Of a DNA stretch of 59,159 nt, positions 51,266 to 59,159 are shown one piece after another. A model generated the notes under the pieces. It did no database searches and was not told the origin of the DNA. It saw only the letters and a program-made list of their open reading frames with translations. Origin of the DNA: Verrucomicrobiales bacterium (lineage in GTDB: Bacteria > Verrucomicrobiota > Verrucomicrobiia > Verrucomicrobiales > DEV007); contig JAEUHH010000060.1 in the NCBI GenBank assembly GCA_016795505.1, positions 1 through 59,159 on the forward strand, written 5' to 3'. The position numbers were made by a program, and so were the translations under genes. Each line of letters begins with the position of its first letter. Within the stretch, counting starts at the first letter, position 1.

Positions 51266-52240
<975 letters not shown>

Positions 52241-52348
52241 GATGGCGACAGTAGGAAGCGGATGGGGGAAAGTAAAAGGTAAAAAGTGAAAAGTGAAAAG
52301 TCCGGGACCGGACGACGGAGGCCCCGCCGCGCCGGCAGAAGCCCCGCC

Positions 52349-52403
52349 CCTGGGAGCGCCGGCATCTCTGCCGGCATCTCTGCCGGCATCTCTGCCGGCG
52401 GCG
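52349..52403. repeat. Tandem GCCGGCATCTCT repeat joined to CCCTGGGAGCGCCGGC element
   Basis: Three exact 12-bp copies (52358-52393) plus a partial copy, preceded by CCCTGGGAGCGCCGGC. An inverted, single-copy version is at 56561-56590. Confidence 0.75.
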
Positions 52404-52634
52404 TTGCAATCGGGGAGCCACGGAGCCGTATCCGAACGGCGTGATTCGTTGATTTCCGGGAATGAGTCCAACAATGCCCTTTTGAGCCAAACTGGCCAGC
52501 GCAGTGACCGATTTCGCTTTTTATCGCCTCAATTGGACATCGACCGCGCCGGGATTGATTGCAGATTGCCACTGGCCGTCGGAGCCGTGAACCACCCAAT
52601 CAAACGAAACACGACCGTTCGGACGCTTCGAAAA

Positions 52635-52719
52635 AAGTAGTTTGGGCTTTAGCCCAAGCGCTATCCCTGCCCACCGGACCCGGACCGGCGCCCCTTTTGG
52701 GCTGAAGCCCAAGCTACTT
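52635..52719. repeat. REP-like inverted pair, TTGGGCT...AGCCCAA
   Basis: AAGTAGTTTGGGCTTTAGCC (from 52635) and its near-complement ending in AAGCTACTT (52697-52719) form inverted arms about 23 bases long, each itself palindromic around GGGCTNNAGCCC. Typical of REP/BIME-type intergenic elements. Confidence 0.75.
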
Positions 52720-52868
52720 TACTTCTAGCCAAGCCAGTCGCGCGCCGCTGCCGAAAATATGGGCACTGGTCATTGGAAGATGGAGGACTGCATGAATGAA
52801 AGGCATGAACGCGACTGTTTTCGAGTCGCGACGTGCAGTTTCGCTCCTGAGCCCACAATCTGAAACAG

Positions 52869-52890
52869 CGGACAGGAGTGTCCGCGCTCC
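52869..52890. repeat. Short palindrome CGGAC-AGGAGT-GTCCG
   Basis: A perfect 5-bp inverted repeat with 6-base loop followed by CGCTCC; part of the repeat island. Confidence 0.45.
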
Positions 52891-53137
52891 GCCAGTAGCA
52901 TTACCCATGAAAAGAGGCCAAAACCTGTGGCCGGAAATGGTTACTCAAAAATGGCTGACGGGCGCCGGCGGGTTGCCGGGATGCCTCAAGCCCGATACCG
53001 ACCGGGCACTGCCAAAGAGCGAGCATGGTGGGGATGCTGACGGGTAGTGCCGGAGGAAGCAAGCCTATTTTTTCCGGGTAGCGAAAAAAATCGGGGCGGA
53101 CTGCCGAGGGGGAGTGTTTCCCGTCGCGTCGGAACCT

Positions 53138-53215
53138 CAAGGAGCGGGGCCGCCCCCGGCCCCGAACGACCGTCCCGTGCGCCTGCGACGGGGCCGGGGG
53201 CGGCCCCGCTCCTTG
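53138..53215. repeat. Very GC-rich perfect 27-bp inverted repeat
   Basis: CAAGGAGCGGGGCCGC begins the left arm and GCGGCCCCGCTCCTTG ends the right arm; the arms match over about 27 bases and flank a 24-base loop. It would form an extremely stable hairpin. Confidence 0.85.
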
Positions 53216-53270
53216 GTGGAGGCACTGCCTCACCGTCGTCTAAAACGGTGCCGCATGGGGTCTGGTTTCC

Positions 53271-53289
53271 GATCAAAGAGGGTTGGATC
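53271..53289. repeat. GATC-bracketed repeat, locus 7 (one unit)
   Basis: GATCAAAGAGGGTTGGATC, preceded by TCC and a degenerate unit containing GGGTCTGGTTTCC, the same phrase as in locus 1. Confidence 0.7.
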
Positions 53290-53353
53290 GGAGAGGGAAG
53301 AGTGTCACCACGGAGGCACGGAGAGCACGGAGGCCGGAATCTTGGGCCGTGCG

Positions 53354-53381
53354 GGTTCCCGGCAGGGAACGAAGCCATGAG
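53354..53381. repeat. 28-base repeat, copy 1 (second at 53533-53560)
   Basis: The phrase contains the palindrome GTTCCCGGCAGGGAAC, then one variable base and AAGCCATGAG. The two copies are direct repeats about 180 bases apart, differing at one position. Confidence 0.75.
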
Positions 53382-53560
53382 AGCAAATGAAATTGATCCG
53401 TAGCCGCGCTCGCCAGAGCGTGGACCAGAGCATCGGGCCAACTTCTGGCGAAGTCGGCTGCGTTTTCTGTTTCAACGCTCTAGCCGGGCCATCTGATCCG
53501 GTGCTATCCACACTACACCGATCACGGACGGGGGTTCCCGGCAGGGAACCAAGCCATGAG

Positions 53561-53790
53561 CCGGGGGTTGAGCGAGGCACGAGCGACGCCCCCGGAACCC
53601 CGTCCCTCCGATCCGCCCGATCCCGGAGGGATCGCAGCCGAGTCCACGGTCCGCCGACGCCCTCACCGGGGCCACTGGAGGCTGGCACCCCGGCCGGGGT
53701 GTCCGATCGGCGAATGATACCCATCCGGTGGTGTCGCTCGTGCCTCGCTCGACCACCGGCTACCGGCTGCGATGCCTCCGGCATCCCGAG
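53561..53790. repeat. Long imperfect palindrome, copy 2
   Basis: Shares TTGAGCGAGG(C/A)ACGAGCGA, CCCGGAGGGAT, GGTGGTGTCG and the terminal GATGCC(T/G)CCGGCATCC with the element at 26-265, again as an inverted layout. More diverged in its centre. Confidence 0.7.
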
Positions 53791-53981
53791 ACCGACCTCA
53801 CCGTCCCAGCTTCGCGCGGATCTCGCCGACGAGGCGGCGGCTGACGCGGTCGTCGTTTTGCCACGTGACGGCGGTGGGATCGGATGCGGCGAGCGTTTCA
53901 GAGACCGCGGAGGCTCGATCCGGAGGCGTAGAGCCGGGAAATCCTCCGTGTCCTCCGCGCCTCCGTGGTGAAATCAATTCC

Positions 53982-56477
53982 TCACTCCCCGTCCCCACCG
54001 CCGAAAACCTCCGCCAATTTCTCATGCAGTTGCGCCGACTGCGAATCCAGATGCATCCCGCGCTGTTTCATGCCCTCCAGCACGGTGAAACAGGCGCGCA
54101 GGGCCGCAACAGCCGCCGCAGAGTCGCCGTTTTCCTGGGCTACGGAGAAGAGCTTGAAGTGCGACATCGCCAGATCGCGCTGCCACTCCGCGTTGGCGGG
54201 GTCGCTGGCGGCGAGGCGCTCGGCGATGGCGAGGCTCTCGGTGTAGCGCCGCGACGCGCCGGCCCCATCGCCCTGGGCGACGGCGAGATCGCCCAGCTTG
54301 TTGAGCGACACCGACAGATCGCGTTGCCACGCGGCGTTGGCGGAGTCGCTGGCGGCGAGGCGCTCGAGAATCGCGTGGCACTCGGTGTAGCGCCGCACCG
54401 CGCCGGGCAGATCGCCCTGAGCGACGGTGAGATCGCCGAGAAGCCTGAGTAATACCGAAAGATCATGCTGCGAATCAGCATTAGAAGGATCAGAAGAAGT
54501 GATTTCCAAGAGTATCGTATGCGCTTCAGATGAACGCCTTTCTGCGCTGGGGAAATCATTCTGGAATAAAGCTATTTCAGCGAGTAAAATATGCGCAGCA
54601 GCAAGATCCCTCCGCCAAATTAAATTATCAGGATCTTCCGAGATACGTCGAGAAGCAATTCTCAGACACTCAAAATAACGCTCTTCAGCGTAGGGAATGT
54701 TTCCCTCCTTAAATGCTGCGTCTCCCAGGACTTTCAATGCCATGGAATATTCTCGCAGTAAAATCGTATTTTCGGGAACCGCCGCAGTCAAACGGTTCAT
54801 AATTGTTAAACTATGCAAGAATTTCTCTTCCGCTTCCTCTGCATTCCCTTGAGCCAAGGCTACTTCGCCAAGTTTAGAAAGGGCAACAGAGAGGTCGTGT
54901 TGCCAATTGACATTTGTTTCATCAGTCTCTGCTAAAAAATTACAGATAGCGAAACTTTCTGAAAATCGTTCCTTTGCAAGGAGTAAGTCACCATGAGCAA
55001 GGGCAATTTCCCCCAATTTTTCTAGCGAAATGGACAAATCCCGTTGCCATTCGAGATTCTCGGGAACAGTGGTAGCGAGGGTCTCGGAAATCTTGAAGCT
55101 GTTCACAAAATGTTTCTCCGCTACGTCACGAGATCCACGGTTGAATGCGATTTGACCAAGCCTACCATACGAAACTGATAAGAGACGTTGATACCACAGA
55201 TTTTCTGGAAACGCTATTACCAGTTTCATCGCGAGTTGATGATTTTCCTCAGCATCAGCCAAAGCTGTAGCCAGTGTGTCGTAGCTTTCCGCATAGATAG
55301 TTCGGTCGTAAAGAAAGTAGGCATAGGAGAATAACGCCTCGGGCCACTCAGGCTCCAACTCGATCAACTCGCGGTAGGCGGCGCGGGCTTCGTCGTTCAG
55401 GCCTTTGGTTCGTTGAATGCCGGCGGCTTGCAGGAGCGGCTCCAGTTTCGTGCGAATGCGCTGGCGCTCGGCCCCGCGGACGGCGCGGACTTCGGCGAGC
55501 ACATCGGCCCGCTGGGTCTCGATGTAGGCGAGGGCGGCATCGACGCCGTCGGTCTCGAGGATGCGGGTCATCTCCAGCAATACGGGGCTGGACTCGCTGT
55601 CGGCGCTCAGCTCGGCGAGGCGATTGGCGAGGTCGTCGATGCGGGCGAGCCGGGACTGGTGCTCGGACTGGGCGGCCTCGGTGAGGCGCTGTCTCTCGGT
55701 CCAGCGGGTCTCTTTAGCGGCGGCGGCGAGGTCGTCCTGAAGGGTGCGCTCGGAGGCTTCCGCCAGCCGCGCCCGCAGGGCGGGGGCATCCATCCGCTGC
55801 GCGGCGATGAGGGTGTCCTGCCGGTGATTCACCCACCACAGCCCGCCGCCGATCAGACACAGGGCGAGCAGCAGAATGGCGAAGGCTTTGATGCCGATGC
55901 GGCGGTTGGCGATGACCTCCCGCCGCACGGCGGCCTGCTCGCGGCGGATGGCGAGCACTTGCTCCTGCAAGGCGAGGATGCGCGCCTGGAGGCTGTCCGC
56001 GGTGGCGGGGCGATCGTAAAGGAAGGGGCTGTCGATGAGCCGGGCGCGGTGCTCGCGCTGGAGGGCGACCTTTTCCTCCGGCTCGGGGTCAGCGCCGGTG
56101 TCGTAGGGGAAGTCGTCGGGACAGACGAAGGTATAGACGCGGAAGCCCTCGTCGCCGCGCTCGTCGTGGAGGCGGCAGCCGATCTCATACTCCATCTGGG
56201 TGTAGCTGCGGCGCGGGGTGCCGGGCGGCAGCGTGGCGGGATCGGGCTCGGCGCCATAGCGCAGACCGGCGATGTGGATGAGGGCCTGGCAGCCGGTGAT
56301 CTTGTCCTCCAGCATGCCGGAGACGGTGCGCCAGTCGGGCTCGAAATTGGTCTGCTCGACGGGATGGCAATTGATGGTGAGCAGGGCCTCTTTGACGATC
56401 TGGCGAACGCTCTTCAGGTCTCCGGAGGTGGCGGAGATGAAGACTTTCGGCGGGGATGAGTCGGTCGCGGGGTCCAT
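53982..56477 (-). CDS. DUF4062-transmembrane-TPR protein with internal low-GC block
   Basis: An 831-aa protein from the ATG at 56477. Residues about 11-105 match DUF4062, a TIR-like fold (KVFISATSGDLKSVRQIVKE, then ALIHIAGLRYG and SYTQMEYEIG). A transmembrane helix spans about 195-216, a charged coiled coil about 225-330, and TPR repeats about 360-805 with a 48-residue period (WQRDLSVSLNKLGDLAVAQGD and relatives). Codons for residues roughly 366-686 (nt 54430-55380) are clearly AT-richer than both flanks, while the last repeats are near-identical at DNA level (144-base period). It probably links a TIR-like or sensor domain to protein-protein contacts; it could be a signalling or defence protein. 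Confidence 0.85.
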   Translation of the reverse strand: MDPATDSSPPKVFISATSGDLKSVRQIVKEALLTINCHPVEQTNFEPDWRTVSGMLEDKITGCQALIHIAGLRYGAEPDPATLPPGTPRRSYTQMEYEIGCRLHDERGDEGFRVYTFVCPDDFPYDTGADPEPEEKVALQREHRARLIDSPFLYDRPATADSLQARILALQEQVLAIRREQAAVRREVIANRRIGIKAFAILLLALCLIGGGLWWVNHRQDTLIAAQRMDAPALRARLAEASERTLQDDLAAAAKETRWTERQRLTEAAQSEHQSRLARIDDLANRLAELSADSESSPVLLEMTRILETDGVDAALAYIETQRADVLAEVRAVRGAERQRIRTKLEPLLQAAGIQRTKGLNDEARAAYRELIELEPEWPEALFSYAYFLYDRTIYAESYDTLATALADAEENHQLAMKLVIAFPENLWYQRLLSVSYGRLGQIAFNRGSRDVAEKHFVNSFKISETLATTVPENLEWQRDLSISLEKLGEIALAHGDLLLAKERFSESFAICNFLAETDETNVNWQHDLSVALSKLGEVALAQGNAEEAEEKFLHSLTIMNRLTAAVPENTILLREYSMALKVLGDAAFKEGNIPYAEERYFECLRIASRRISEDPDNLIWRRDLAAAHILLAEIALFQNDFPSAERRSSEAHTILLEITSSDPSNADSQHDLSVLLRLLGDLTVAQGDLPGAVRRYTECHAILERLAASDSANAAWQRDLSVSLNKLGDLAVAQGDGAGASRRYTESLAIAERLAASDPANAEWQRDLAMSHFKLFSVAQENGDSAAAVAALRACFTVLEGMKQRGMHLDSQSAQLHEKLAEVFGGGDGE

Positions 56478-56560
56478 GGAGTGCCCAGCATGATGCGCCC
56501 GCGCCCGTCCTTTGTCCAGCACGGACGGGAAGGCGCCATCATCATCAGTCACAAACACTC

Positions 56561-56590
56561 CGCCGGCAGGGATGCCGGCGCTCCCAGGGA
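56561..56590. repeat. CGCCGGCAGGGATGCCGGCG palindrome plus CTCCCAGGG
   Basis: Inverted relative of the element at 52349-52403. Lies between the SpeA and DUF4062-TPR genes. Confidence 0.65.
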
Positions 56591-56633
56591 AATCGGGGGA
56601 GCGTAGCCGATCCCGAGTCCCCCACCCCGCGGC

Positions 56634-58631
56634 TCAGCTCTCGAAATACGTGTACCCGCTCATCCCCTCGCGGTAGGCCTCCAGCGCCTTTCGCCGCTGG
56701 ACGGCGGTGATGCGGCCTTCCTGGATGGCGGTCTCGGCGAGTTCGCGGAACTGGTCGATCAACTTCTTGGGGTCGTGCTCGACGTAGGCCAGCACGTCGG
56801 CGACGGAATCGCCCTCGACTTCGCGGGAGAAGCGCACCCGGCCATTGACGACGTCGACGCTGACGGCGTGGGTGTCGCCGAAGAGGTTGTGCAAGTCGCT
56901 GAGGGTCTCCTGATAGGCGCCGACGAGGAAGATGCCGAGGTAGTAGCTGCGGTCGGGCTCGGTCTCATGGACGGGCAGGGCCTCCATGACCTCGGAGCTG
57001 GACACGTACTTTTTGATCATGCCGTCGCAGTCGCAGGTGACGTCGTGGATGACGCCCTGGCGGGTGGGTCGCTCGGCGAGGCGGTGCAGGGGCATGACGG
57101 GGAAGGCGCAGTCGATGGCCCAGGAGTCGGCGAGGGACTGGAAGATGCTGAAATTCCCATAGTACTGGTCGGCAAGGAGGCCCGAGAGGTCGCGCAGCTC
57201 CTCGGGGACGTAGCGGAGCTTCTGGGTCTCGGCGGCGATCTCGGTCATGGCGCGCCAGTAGCACTGCTCGCAGGCGGCGCGCTCGCGCAGGCCGATGTCG
57301 CCGGTGAGGAAATTCTCGTGCAGCTCCTCTCGGTAGCGGTTGGCCTTGCCGAAGGACTCGAGGAGGTTGTCGGCATTGATGCCGTTGGCGACTTCGGCGA
57401 GGGCGACGAGGGCCTCGGTGGAGTCGTCGGCGACGCGGAGTTCGTCGCGGTTCTCGAAGCGGTTCACATCGAGGATCTCCAGGGCGAGCATGGAGTAGTG
57501 GGCGACCATGGCGCGGCCGGACTCGGTGACGAGGGTGGGATGGGGCACGCCGCTCTCGTCGAGCACCCATTTCACGGCATCGACGAGGCTGTGGCAGTAT
57601 TCCTCGATGGAGTAGTTGGCACTGGTGGAGCGGGTGGAGCGGGAGCCGTCGTAGTCGACGGCGAGGCCGCCGCCGAGATTGAGCAGGCCCATGGGGGCGC
57701 CTTCTTTGACCAATCCGGCGTAGATGCGGGCGGTCTCCTCGATGGAGCGGCGGATGATGGTGAGGTCGGGGATCTGGGAGCCTTGGTGGCAGTGGAGCAT
57801 CTGGAGCCAGCCGAGGCGGCCGCGCTCGCGGAGGCGCTCGACGGTCTCGACGAGCTGGGCGAGATTCAGGCCGAAGGGGCTTTTTTCGCCGCCGGATTTG
57901 GCCCATTTGCCGGCACCTTCGGCGGAGAGTTTGACCCGCACGCCGATGACGGGCTCGACGCCGAGGGCGGCGGAGCGCTTTTCGATGATGCCCAGCTCGT
58001 GCGGCATCTCGAGCACCATGATGACGCGCAGGCCCATGAGCTGGCCGTAGAGGGCGAGGTCGATGAATTCCTCGTCCTTGTAGCCGTTGCAGACGAGCAG
58101 GGCGTCGGGGTCTTTCAGGTAGGCGAGCGCGGCCATGAGCTCGGGCTTGCTGCCGACCTCGAAGCCGTAGTGGAAACGGCGCCCGTAGGCGGCCACCTCC
58201 TCGGCGACCTGCTGCTGCTGGTTCACCTTGATGGGAAACACGCCGCGATACATGCCGCCGTACTCCAGATCGCTGATGGCTTTGGCAAAGCCGTGATAGA
58301 GCTCCTCGATGCGCCGCTCGAGGATGCGGGGAAAGCGCAGCAGCAGCGGCGGACGGATGCCGCGGGCGTCCAGCTCGTCGAGCAGCTTCGGCACGCTGAC
58401 GGAGTGCGGCGAGCCGGTGGCGCGGTCGGTCAGGTCCACGACCACGTCGCCGCGGCGGGAGATGGAGTAGTAGCCGGCGCCCCAGTGATTGATGCCGTAG
58501 GTCTCGGCGGCGTCCTCGATCGACCAGGTCTCCTCGGCGGCGGCCGGGTCGGCTTTCTTCGCATTCGACTGCGGCTTGCGGGAACGGACCGCCGGCGTGC
58601 GGGCGGGAGCGGGGGTGCGGCGCTGGCTCAT
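56634..58631 (-). CDS. speA: Biosynthetic arginine decarboxylase
   Basis: A 665-aa PLP enzyme of fold type III converting arginine to agmatine, the first step of one polyamine route. GVFPIKVNQQQQVAEEV carries the Schiff-base Lys135; HCHQGSQIPD, NLGGGLAVDYDGS and VTESGRAMVAHYS bind cofactor and substrate; CDCDGMIKKYV is the conserved C-terminal active-site loop. Length and order match the SpeA family (about 630-660 aa). The N-terminal 30 residues are basic and disordered. Possible partner: the deoxyhypusine-synthase-like gene at 51266. No agmatinase or agmatine deiminase gene is visible in the window. Confidence 0.95.
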   Translation of the reverse strand: MSQRRTPAPARTPAVRSRKPQSNAKKADPAAAEETWSIEDAAETYGINHWGAGYYSISRRGDVVVDLTDRATGSPHSVSVPKLLDELDARGIRPPLLLRFPRILERRIEELYHGFAKAISDLEYGGMYRGVFPIKVNQQQQVAEEVAAYGRRFHYGFEVGSKPELMAALAYLKDPDALLVCNGYKDEEFIDLALYGQLMGLRVIMVLEMPHELGIIEKRSAALGVEPVIGVRVKLSAEGAGKWAKSGGEKSPFGLNLAQLVETVERLRERGRLGWLQMLHCHQGSQIPDLTIIRRSIEETARIYAGLVKEGAPMGLLNLGGGLAVDYDGSRSTRSTSANYSIEEYCHSLVDAVKWVLDESGVPHPTLVTESGRAMVAHYSMLALEILDVNRFENRDELRVADDSTEALVALAEVANGINADNLLESFGKANRYREELHENFLTGDIGLRERAACEQCYWRAMTEIAAETQKLRYVPEELRDLSGLLADQYYGNFSIFQSLADSWAIDCAFPVMPLHRLAERPTRQGVIHDVTCDCDGMIKKYVSSSEVMEALPVHETEPDRSYYLGIFLVGAYQETLSDLHNLFGDTHAVSVDVVNGRVRFSREVEGDSVADVLAYVEHDPKKLIDQFRELAETAIQEGRITAVQRRKALEAYREGMSGYTYFES

Positions 58632-58799: not shown

Positions 58800-59159
58800 A
58801 TGGCTATTATCCATCCCTTCAGACGTTCACTGGCATTCTGCCTCACCGCCACCGTCATCGCCGCCCAGGTCGGCTGCGATCGATCCGCCGCTCCGACGCC
58901 TCCGGCTGCTCCGGAAGCAAAATCGGAAGCTCCCGCCACGCCCGCTCCCGCTCCGGCAAAATCTGAAGCACCTGCTTCCGCTCCGGCTCCCGCCAAAGCA
59001 CCCGAAGCCGCTCCGGCCACGCCTGCTCCGGCCACGCCTGCTCCGGCCACGCCTGCTCCGGCCACGCCTGCTCCGGCCACGCCTGCTCCGGCCACGCCTG
59101 CTCCGGCCACGCCTGCTCCGGCCACGCCTGCTCCGGCCACGCCTGCTCCGGCCTCGCCT
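58800..59159 (+). CDS. Start of a Pro/Ala-rich exported protein (runs off window)
   Basis: From the ATG at 58800 the frame stays open to the window end (120 codons). The first 26 residues form a signal-like segment (MAIIHPFRRSLAFCLTATVI, then AAQVGC); the -3 residue before the Cys is Gln, so lipoprotein processing is uncertain. The rest is Ala/Pro-rich with (A)KSEAPA phrases then a run of PATPA pentapeptides encoded by 15-bp DNA repeats. Such linkers usually space an exported domain from the membrane or wall. The functional domain lies beyond the window. Transcribed divergently from speA across about 170 bases. Confidence 0.7.
   Translation, partial: MAIIHPFRRSLAFCLTATVIAAQVGCDRSAAPTPPAAPEAKSEAPATPAPAPAKSEAPASAPAPAKAPEAAPATPAPATPAPATPAPATPAPATPAPATPAPATPAPATPAPATPAPASP
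59010..59159 (+). repeat. Ten 15-bp tandem repeats (GCTCCGGCCACGCCT)
   Basis: Ten consecutive units, in frame, encode Ala-Pro-Ala-Thr-Pro each; only the last differs (GCCTCGCCT). The array reaches the window edge and may continue. Near-perfect identity suggests recent expansion and variable copy number. Confidence 0.95.

What the first reader, a model, noticed from the sequence alone, without database searches (positions are those of the whole stretch)
54430..55380. Low-GC block inside the DUF4062-TPR gene
About 950 bases encoding TPR repeats have clearly lower GC than the 5' and 3' parts of the same frame, which stay open. The 3' repeats are near-identical at 144-base period while the central ones are diverged. 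This suggests that a foreign TPR segment was swapped in, as in variable-repeat recognition proteins.
Basis: seen in the sequence. Interest (0 to 1): 0.56.

Follow-up and report, generated by a model that had tools for sequence, protein, structure and literature searches.

The report
Patchwork sensor in a bacterial NADase-type gene
A bacterial gene that looks like a membrane-bound immune receptor is stitched together from at least three sources, with a foreign-looking piece in its sensor part joined in frame to an ending shared with another receptor gene of the same genome, so it may show repeat-sensor exchange in a bacterium.

Summary
The low-GC block is real. It runs from window 54441 to 55334 (GC 0.44, GC3 0.39) inside one open frame whose two ends are at 0.69. 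It is the strongest within-gene contrast of 182 ORFs sampled from this genome. The gene (831 aa from ATG 56477, minus strand) encodes a DUF4062 domain, recently reported to be a TIR-like NADase, then a probable transmembrane helix, a linker and eight 48-residue TPR units. Units 1-5 are low-GC, unit 6 is a hybrid, units 7-8 are GC-rich. Where GC changes inside unit 6, strong DNA similarity begins to a second receptor locus of this genome (TIR, P-loop, TPR) and continues about 1.4 kb, past the stop codon. A decayed C-terminus of another type lies 62 bp behind the stop. The 120 bp before the start codon are shared too. Two congeners lack the gene: its neighbours adjoin directly there. So it is an accessory chimera. 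'Foreign segment swapped in' is partly right: the segment is foreign-like, but the exchange that can be documented is at the 3' end. No donor was found. Function (NAD+ depletion upon sensing through the TPRs) is inferred.

The parts
53982..56477 (-). DUF4062-TM-linker-TPR gene (831 aa from ATG 56477; the listed GTG frame starts at 56558)
   Evidence: Open frame; Pfam DUF4062 and TPR; homology to the C56 locus upstream ends at this ATG
55938..56477 (-). Head: DUF4062, predicted TIR/NDT-like fold, conserved Glu at residue 96
   Evidence: Pfam 47.8 bits, cut-off 24.7; E96 invariant in 15 of 15 sequences; model pLDDT 91.6; best PDB matches are TIR domains, Z 12.3
55335..55937 (-). Probable transmembrane helix and linker, GC-rich
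   Evidence: Hydrophobic stretch read by eye, long helix in model; linker similar to G662 and G506 at 34-37%
54441..55334 (-). Low-GC block: end of linker, TPR units 1-5 and first third of unit 6
   Evidence: Change points; GC3 0.39; codon score
54345..54488 (-). Hybrid TPR unit 6, breakpoint at about 54441
   Evidence: Matches to C56 units 3-7 of 12 bases up to the breakpoint except one step at 8-10 of 12, then mostly 9-12 of 12 with two weaker steps
53982..54440 (-). GC-rich 3' part: rest of unit 6, units 7-8 and C-terminal tail, shared with C56
   Evidence: 87% DNA identity over 459 bp to C56:11487-11945
53004..53981 (-). Shared non-coding 3' flank, partly made of interspersed repeats
   Evidence: 96.4% identity to C56 in the first 582 bp, 89% in the rest; partial copies elsewhere
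53801..53920 (-). Fossil of another TPR-gene C-terminus, 62 bp behind the stop codon
   Evidence: tblastn with four relatives' C-termini: E 7e-10 to 1.5e-8, 4 of 4 queries
56473..56594 (-). 5' leader shared with the C56 locus, ending at the start codon
   Evidence: 87% identity over 124 columns
52241..56633 (.). Accessory insertion between dhs-like gene and speA
   Evidence: In G002 and G003 these genes are 6 and 17 bp apart

Best explanation
This is an accessory, chimeric receptor gene. Shown: (1) gene and flanks are a 4.4-kb insertion between speA and a dhs-like gene that adjoin in two congeners; (2) the 5' leader up to the start codon, and the last 459 bp of the gene with its 3' flank, are shared with another accessory receptor locus of the genome, while the head and central array are not; (3) the central array is low-GC and keeps the exact 48-residue register across a breakpoint inside TPR unit 6; (4) a decayed C-terminus of another type lies behind the present stop. 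Inferred: recombination within the repeat array between a low-GC array from a horizontally moving TPR-receptor gene and the array of the C56-type locus replaced the 3' end (or, less likely, the middle), keeping frame because the units are exactly 144 bp and homologous; the decayed C-terminus is the former end. Also inferred: the protein works like other DUF4062 proteins. The N-terminal TIR-like domain cleaves NAD+ when the C-terminal TPR solenoid binds a trigger, perhaps a phage protein; the hybrid array would give an old effector a new recognition surface.
For: Composition and codon use. The GC change point (54445, interval 54422-54457) and the onset of C56 homology (about 54440) agree within the interval. 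Units are 48 aa each with no indels. Shared leader, tail and flank. Empty site in 2 of 2 congeners where the speA neighbourhood could be read (a third could not be judged). C56 is itself an insertion (5.8 kb against about 0.25 kb in G002). Fossil C-terminus at both loci. Nearest relatives differ by segment: head G027 64%, linker G662 37%, tail C56 80%; G027 carries a different, 42-residue TPR array. A whole 48-residue-TPR gene of the same composition as the block (GC 0.448, GC3 0.395) sits in GC 0.63-0.65 surroundings in G504, same order. TIR-like fold and conserved Glu. Continuous solenoid over the breakpoint, pLDDT about 88-97 there. DUF4062 as NADase in antiphage defence: PMC13174449, preprint.
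Against: No donor: the best match outside the genome by E-value is 36% identical. The direction of exchange is not fixed. The 5' edge has no paralog to confirm it; it rests on composition alone. The tail coding part is more diverged from C56 (88.9%, 8 synonymous and 12 nonsynonymous codon differences in 72) than the flank (96.4%), so a single recent transfer does not explain both. No PADLOC family matches this protein, and the immediate neighbours are housekeeping genes. The assembly is a draft of 120 contigs, perhaps a metagenome bin.
Confidence: 0.72

Rival explanations
1. The low-GC array is resident in this receptor type and simply escaped the GC-raising process: the near-identical GC-rich units were homogenised and amplified with the C56 locus, and the old units kept a low GC under relaxed codon selection.
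For: Linker and block match the same relatives G662 and G506 across the 5' edge, so they may have travelled together; L223 has a mild dip over the array.
Against: GC3 falls from 0.87 to 0.40, far outside other genes of the genome; in the two relatives with the same linker the array GC3 is about 0.69-0.80; the linker upstream is GC-rich with a sharp edge (interval 55331-55340).
Confidence: 0.12
2. Assembly chimera: a contaminant low-GC TPR gene was joined into the host contig.
For: Draft genome in 120 contigs; a repeat array is a place where assemblers fail.
Against: Two joins, both in frame, one in non-repetitive sequence; only about 12 bases are shared at the 3' breakpoint; estimated contamination 0.52%.
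Confidence: 0.06
3. A C56-type gene was duplicated and its head and middle were replaced by one foreign DUF4062-TPR segment.
For: Both the leader and the 3' end are C56-like, as expected of a duplicate with a replaced interior.
Against: Head and linker have host-like GC3 (about 0.9) and the block has not, so the interior is not of one composition; the head's best relative has another array type.
Confidence: 0.2

Closest known systems
DUF4062 TIR-like NADases / Swarozyc antiphage system (PMC13174449, preprint; abstract, Results part 1 and passages read)
   Same: DUF4062 head, conserved Glu, TIR-like fold, effector joined to a C-terminal recognition part, patchy accessory distribution
   Different: Swarozyc has a helix-turn-helix/winged auxiliary domain that binds the phage portal; here a probable membrane helix, a linker and a TPR solenoid
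Fungal NLRs with WD, ANK and TPR repeats (PMC4986451, passages read)
   Same: Effector plus repeat sensor; repeat exchange within and between genes is reported there
   Different: No NTPase in the window protein; the exchange here joins diverged units of different composition, not near-identical ones; no population data
Sharing of C-terminal sensor regions among loci with different N-terminal domains in Thiohalocapsa (PMC10907252, passages read)
   Same: C-terminal region duplicated and joined to distinct N-terminal domains
   Different: There the sensor is a C-type lectin with diversity-generating retroelements; I did not search for such retroelements here
Multicellular-bacteria conflict systems with TPR effectors and STAND NTPases (PMC7159879, passages read)
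   Same: Modular architectures with TPR superstructures, also in Verrucomicrobia
   Different: The passages read describe domain shuffling between systems, not a breakpoint inside a TPR unit

Membership tests
DUF4062 TIR-like NADase family | DUF4062 domain over Pfam cut-off | tested here: met
   47.8 bits against 24.7
DUF4062 TIR-like NADase family | TIR-like fold | tested here: met
   Model pLDDT 91.6; 7xoz and 7s2z TIR domains Z 12.3, rmsd 4.1 and 3.7 over 135 and 147 residues
DUF4062 TIR-like NADase family | Conserved catalytic Glu | tested here: met
   E96 invariant in 15 of 15; equivalence to E97 of KpSwz is inferred, KpSwz was not aligned
DUF4062 TIR-like NADase family | NAD+ hydrolysis | not testable with these tools
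   Needs an enzyme assay
Swarozyc antiphage system | C-terminal helix-turn-helix/winged portal-binding domain | tested here: not met
   C-terminus is a TPR solenoid
Swarozyc antiphage system | Location in a defence island | tested here: inconclusive
   Neighbours are speA and a dhs-like gene; PADLOC was run on this protein and the C56 paralog only: 0 families for this protein
STAND/NLR-type receptor | Central NTPase | tested here: not met
   No NTPase family in the 858-aa frame; the C56 paralog has a TIR domain by Pfam and a P-loop read by eye
Repeat-diversifying receptors as in fungal NLRs | High internal repeat identity (over 85% across 100 aa) | tested here: not met
   Units 1-5 are 23-46% identical to each other; in C56 units 1-6 are 73-90%
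Repeat-diversifying receptors as in fungal NLRs | Repeat exchange between paralogs | tested here: inconclusive
   Shared tail and breakpoint with C56; direction and timing open
Repeat-diversifying receptors as in fungal NLRs | Repeat-number polymorphism among strains | not testable with these tools
   One genome per species is held; two congeners lack the gene

The most novel reading that the evidence does not exclude
These bacteria keep receptor 'exchange sites': accessory loci with a constant leader and a constant 3' end, between which effector heads (DUF4062, TIR-STAND) and repeat-sensor arrays are replaced by recombination in TPR register, displaced C-termini being left behind as fossils. 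That would be a bacterial route to new receptor specificities by array exchange, without a dedicated enzyme.
Probability: 0.22. Interest if true: 0.75.

Novelty: new variant of a known kind. Interest (0 to 1): 0.52.

Why it matters
How bacterial immune-type receptors gain new specificities is open. This locus records a series of events: a shared leader, a breakpoint inside a TPR unit, a composition-marked foreign-like array and a fossil of what was probably a former C-terminus. It makes array exchange between a TIR-like NADase and a TIR-STAND-like receptor directly testable.

Tried and rejected
Donor search for the block: second scan of genome contigs, viral contigs and phages found none; plasmids gave 6 records at 25-34% identity; 32 of 387 phylum genomes and 129 of 386 order genomes match, own genome counted in both; best outside it 36% over residues 6-280 (G662). 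The whole protein in genome contigs: none. PDB by sequence for the head: none. Rfam on 52200-56700: none.

A second mosaic was suspected in L195 (gain 51.3) and rejected: the low-GC3 part is an over-extended wrong frame before the TIR start. In one search only the window gene among 51 ORFs of at least 500 aa kept a strong contrast; some of those ORFs are neighbours or doubtful frames, as are some of the 182.

A 9-bp inverted repeat at the two block edges (pair I11) was tested: 304 of 20000 random zone pairs have one as long, so it is given no weight. A dedicated mobile element bounded by the 28-bp REP-like inverted pair was considered and not kept: that sequence recurs in most of the 26 places listed, often as close pairs, and its 15-base core is absent from the C56 stretch L007. 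Positive selection on the tail was considered from 12 nonsynonymous against 8 synonymous codon differences and dropped, because synonymous divergence also exceeds that of the flank. Foldseek for the TPR model gave ordinary TPR superhelices. Literature on this precise kind of event: the searches listed no title or abstract start that describes it; most subscription papers are not held.

Full report
OBSERVATION. The gene lies on the minus strand; the mechanical frame is 53982-56558 (858 aa), but homology of the upstream region to a second locus ends at ATG 56477, which gives 831 aa and is the likely start. A three-segment likelihood fit finds the low-GC block at 54441-55334 with GC 0.441 between parts at 0.685 and 0.688; the edges are sharp (55331-55340 and 54422-54457). 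In 459 kb of this genome (the window plus 20 stretches of 20 kb that I chose from 19 contigs) the gene ranks first of 182 ORFs for GC3 contrast, and the only 900-bp windows at or below GC 0.46 are in this block. Codon use departs from that of three host genes only in the block. The 'near-identical 144-base repeats' are only about two units within this gene.

ANATOMY. Residues are counted in the 858-aa frame unless said otherwise. Pfam finds DUF4062 (38-125) and TPR. Eight units of exactly 48 residues fill 451-834. GC3 per unit is 0.44, 0.35, 0.42, 0.40, 0.33, 0.69, 0.92, 0.83. Unit 6 is a hybrid: its first 48 bases fit the C56 units poorly (3-7 of 12 in three steps, 8-10 of 12 in one), and from 54440 on most 12-base steps fit at 9-12 of 12, with weaker steps at 54392 and 54380. 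Units 1-5 are 42-56% identical in DNA to the C56 units 1-6, about as far as from each other; unit 7 is 85-94% identical to C56 units 1-6 and unit 8 is 93% identical to C56 unit 7. The predicted solenoid is continuous across the breakpoint (mean pLDDT 89.1).

THE SECOND LOCUS. Contig C56 carries a 1117-aa gene (L007 2593-5946) with TIR and TPR domains by Pfam and a P-loop read by eye, all GC-rich. It shares three things with the window gene: about 120 bp of leader ending at the start codon (87%), the last 459 bp of the gene (87%), and about 1 kb of 3' flank (96.4% over the first 582 bp, 89% beyond). Head and central array are not shared at the DNA level. Within the 3' flank, 62 bp behind the stop codon, both loci hold a decayed C-terminus of the type that ends the 48-residue-TPR genes in G506, G538, G471 and G454 (window 53801-53920 and L007 6010-6126; 4 of 4 queries, E 7e-10 to 1.5e-8 in the window). 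I read this as the former end of the array.

ACCESSORY STATUS. In congeners G002 and G003, speA and the dhs-like gene are 6 and 17 bp apart; in the window 4.4 kb lies between them. (The names speA and dhs rest on my reading of the sequences.) G001 gave only a 159-bp match to speA and could not be judged. The C56 locus is an insertion as well: L007 2491-8297 against about 0.25 kb in G002; in G003 and G001 only the upstream side could be compared. A whole-protein search matched 31 of 57 relatives, own genome included, but no full-length ortholog.

SEGMENTS HAVE DIFFERENT RELATIVES. Against 15 fetched loci, the head is nearest to G027 (64%) and G018:C15 (55%), the linker to G662 (37%) and G506 (34%), the tail to C56 (80%). 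G027 joins the same head to a 42-residue NPHP3-like TPR array. The block is aligned over its full length by G506 and G662 (34-36%), whose genes have the same linker; the C56 units reach 42%, probably because they are close to the family consensus. So linker and block may have a common history, while the linker has host-like GC and the block has not. This is why I do not claim that the block was the incoming piece.

WHERE A LOW-GC ARRAY COULD COME FROM. In G504 (same order) a complete 48-residue-TPR gene has GC 0.448 and GC3 0.395, almost equal to the block (0.441, 0.393), between flanks of GC 0.63-0.65. Its identity to the block is only 35%, so it is not the donor, but it shows a low-GC gene of this family in GC-rich surroundings within the order. 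No close relative of the block was found.

FUNCTION. The head model is a TIR/NDT-like fold (Foldseek; VIA-align Z 12.3 to two TIR structures). E96 (ATG numbering) is invariant in 15 of 15 aligned heads and sits near the start of the helix after the third strand. A 2026 preprint (PMC13174449; abstract, Results part 1 and passages read) reports that DUF4062 proteins are TIR-like NADases, that one acts as an antiphage system (Swarozyc) through a conserved Glu, E97, and that its C-terminal part binds the phage portal. By analogy I infer a TPR-sensed, membrane-anchored NADase. It is not a member of Swarozyc in the strict sense, since the C-terminal domain differs. Activity, trigger and membrane location are untested.

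MECHANISM AND DOUBTS. The simplest history is recombination inside the TPR array between a low-GC array and a C56-type array, bringing or keeping the C56-type end, with an older end left behind the stop. The unit length of 144 bp makes such joins keep frame and register. Two facts resist a single recent event: the shared coding tail (88.9% over 72 codons) is more diverged than the shared flank (96.4%), with synonymous changes raised too, and the 5' edge of the block has no paralog evidence. Repeated exchange would explain both; so would unsampled copies. I therefore hold the chimera claim strongly, the direction weakly.

NOVELTY. Repeat exchange among receptor genes is described for fungal NLRs (PMC4986451, passages), and C-terminal sensor sharing with different N-termini for Thiohalocapsa (PMC10907252, passages). 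What seems new is an in-register join of arrays of different composition inside one TPR unit of a bacterial TIR-like NADase gene, with a shared leader, a shared end and a fossil end. I rate it a new variant of a known kind.

Noticed in passing
window 53801-53920; L007 6010-6126: Decayed C-terminus of another TPR-gene type behind the stop codon at both receptor loci.
   Followed up: yes
window 52348-52375 and 56562-56589: A 28-bp REP-like sequence stands in inverted orientation near both ends of the insertion; most of 26 places listed hold a copy.
   Followed up: partly
window 54442-54450 and 55346-55354: A perfect 9-bp inverted repeat lies at both edges of the block; about 1.5% of random zone pairs have one.
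   Followed up: yes
L179 (own genome C89): Two further DUF4062 genes of about 1400 aa; one ends in a long series of very similar WD-type repeats (read by eye).
   Followed up: no
L229 (G504:C222): Low-GC 48-residue-TPR gene in GC-rich surroundings, ending in what looks like a response-regulator domain (read by eye).
   Followed up: partly
L195 (G230:C16): Two receptor genes close together, both with 51-residue TPR arrays and very similar tails: perhaps the same kind of array sharing.
   Followed up: partly
L222 (G662:C96): Same linker and array, but the DUF4062 head seems to lack its middle, catalytic Glu included.
   Followed up: no
window 59010-59159: Ten copies of a 15-bp repeat at 99% run to the contig end; the frame reads PAPAT-like repeats.
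   Followed up: no
L115 5044-5973: A transposase-like ORF directly behind the G027 relative (name recalled, not searched).
   Followed up: no
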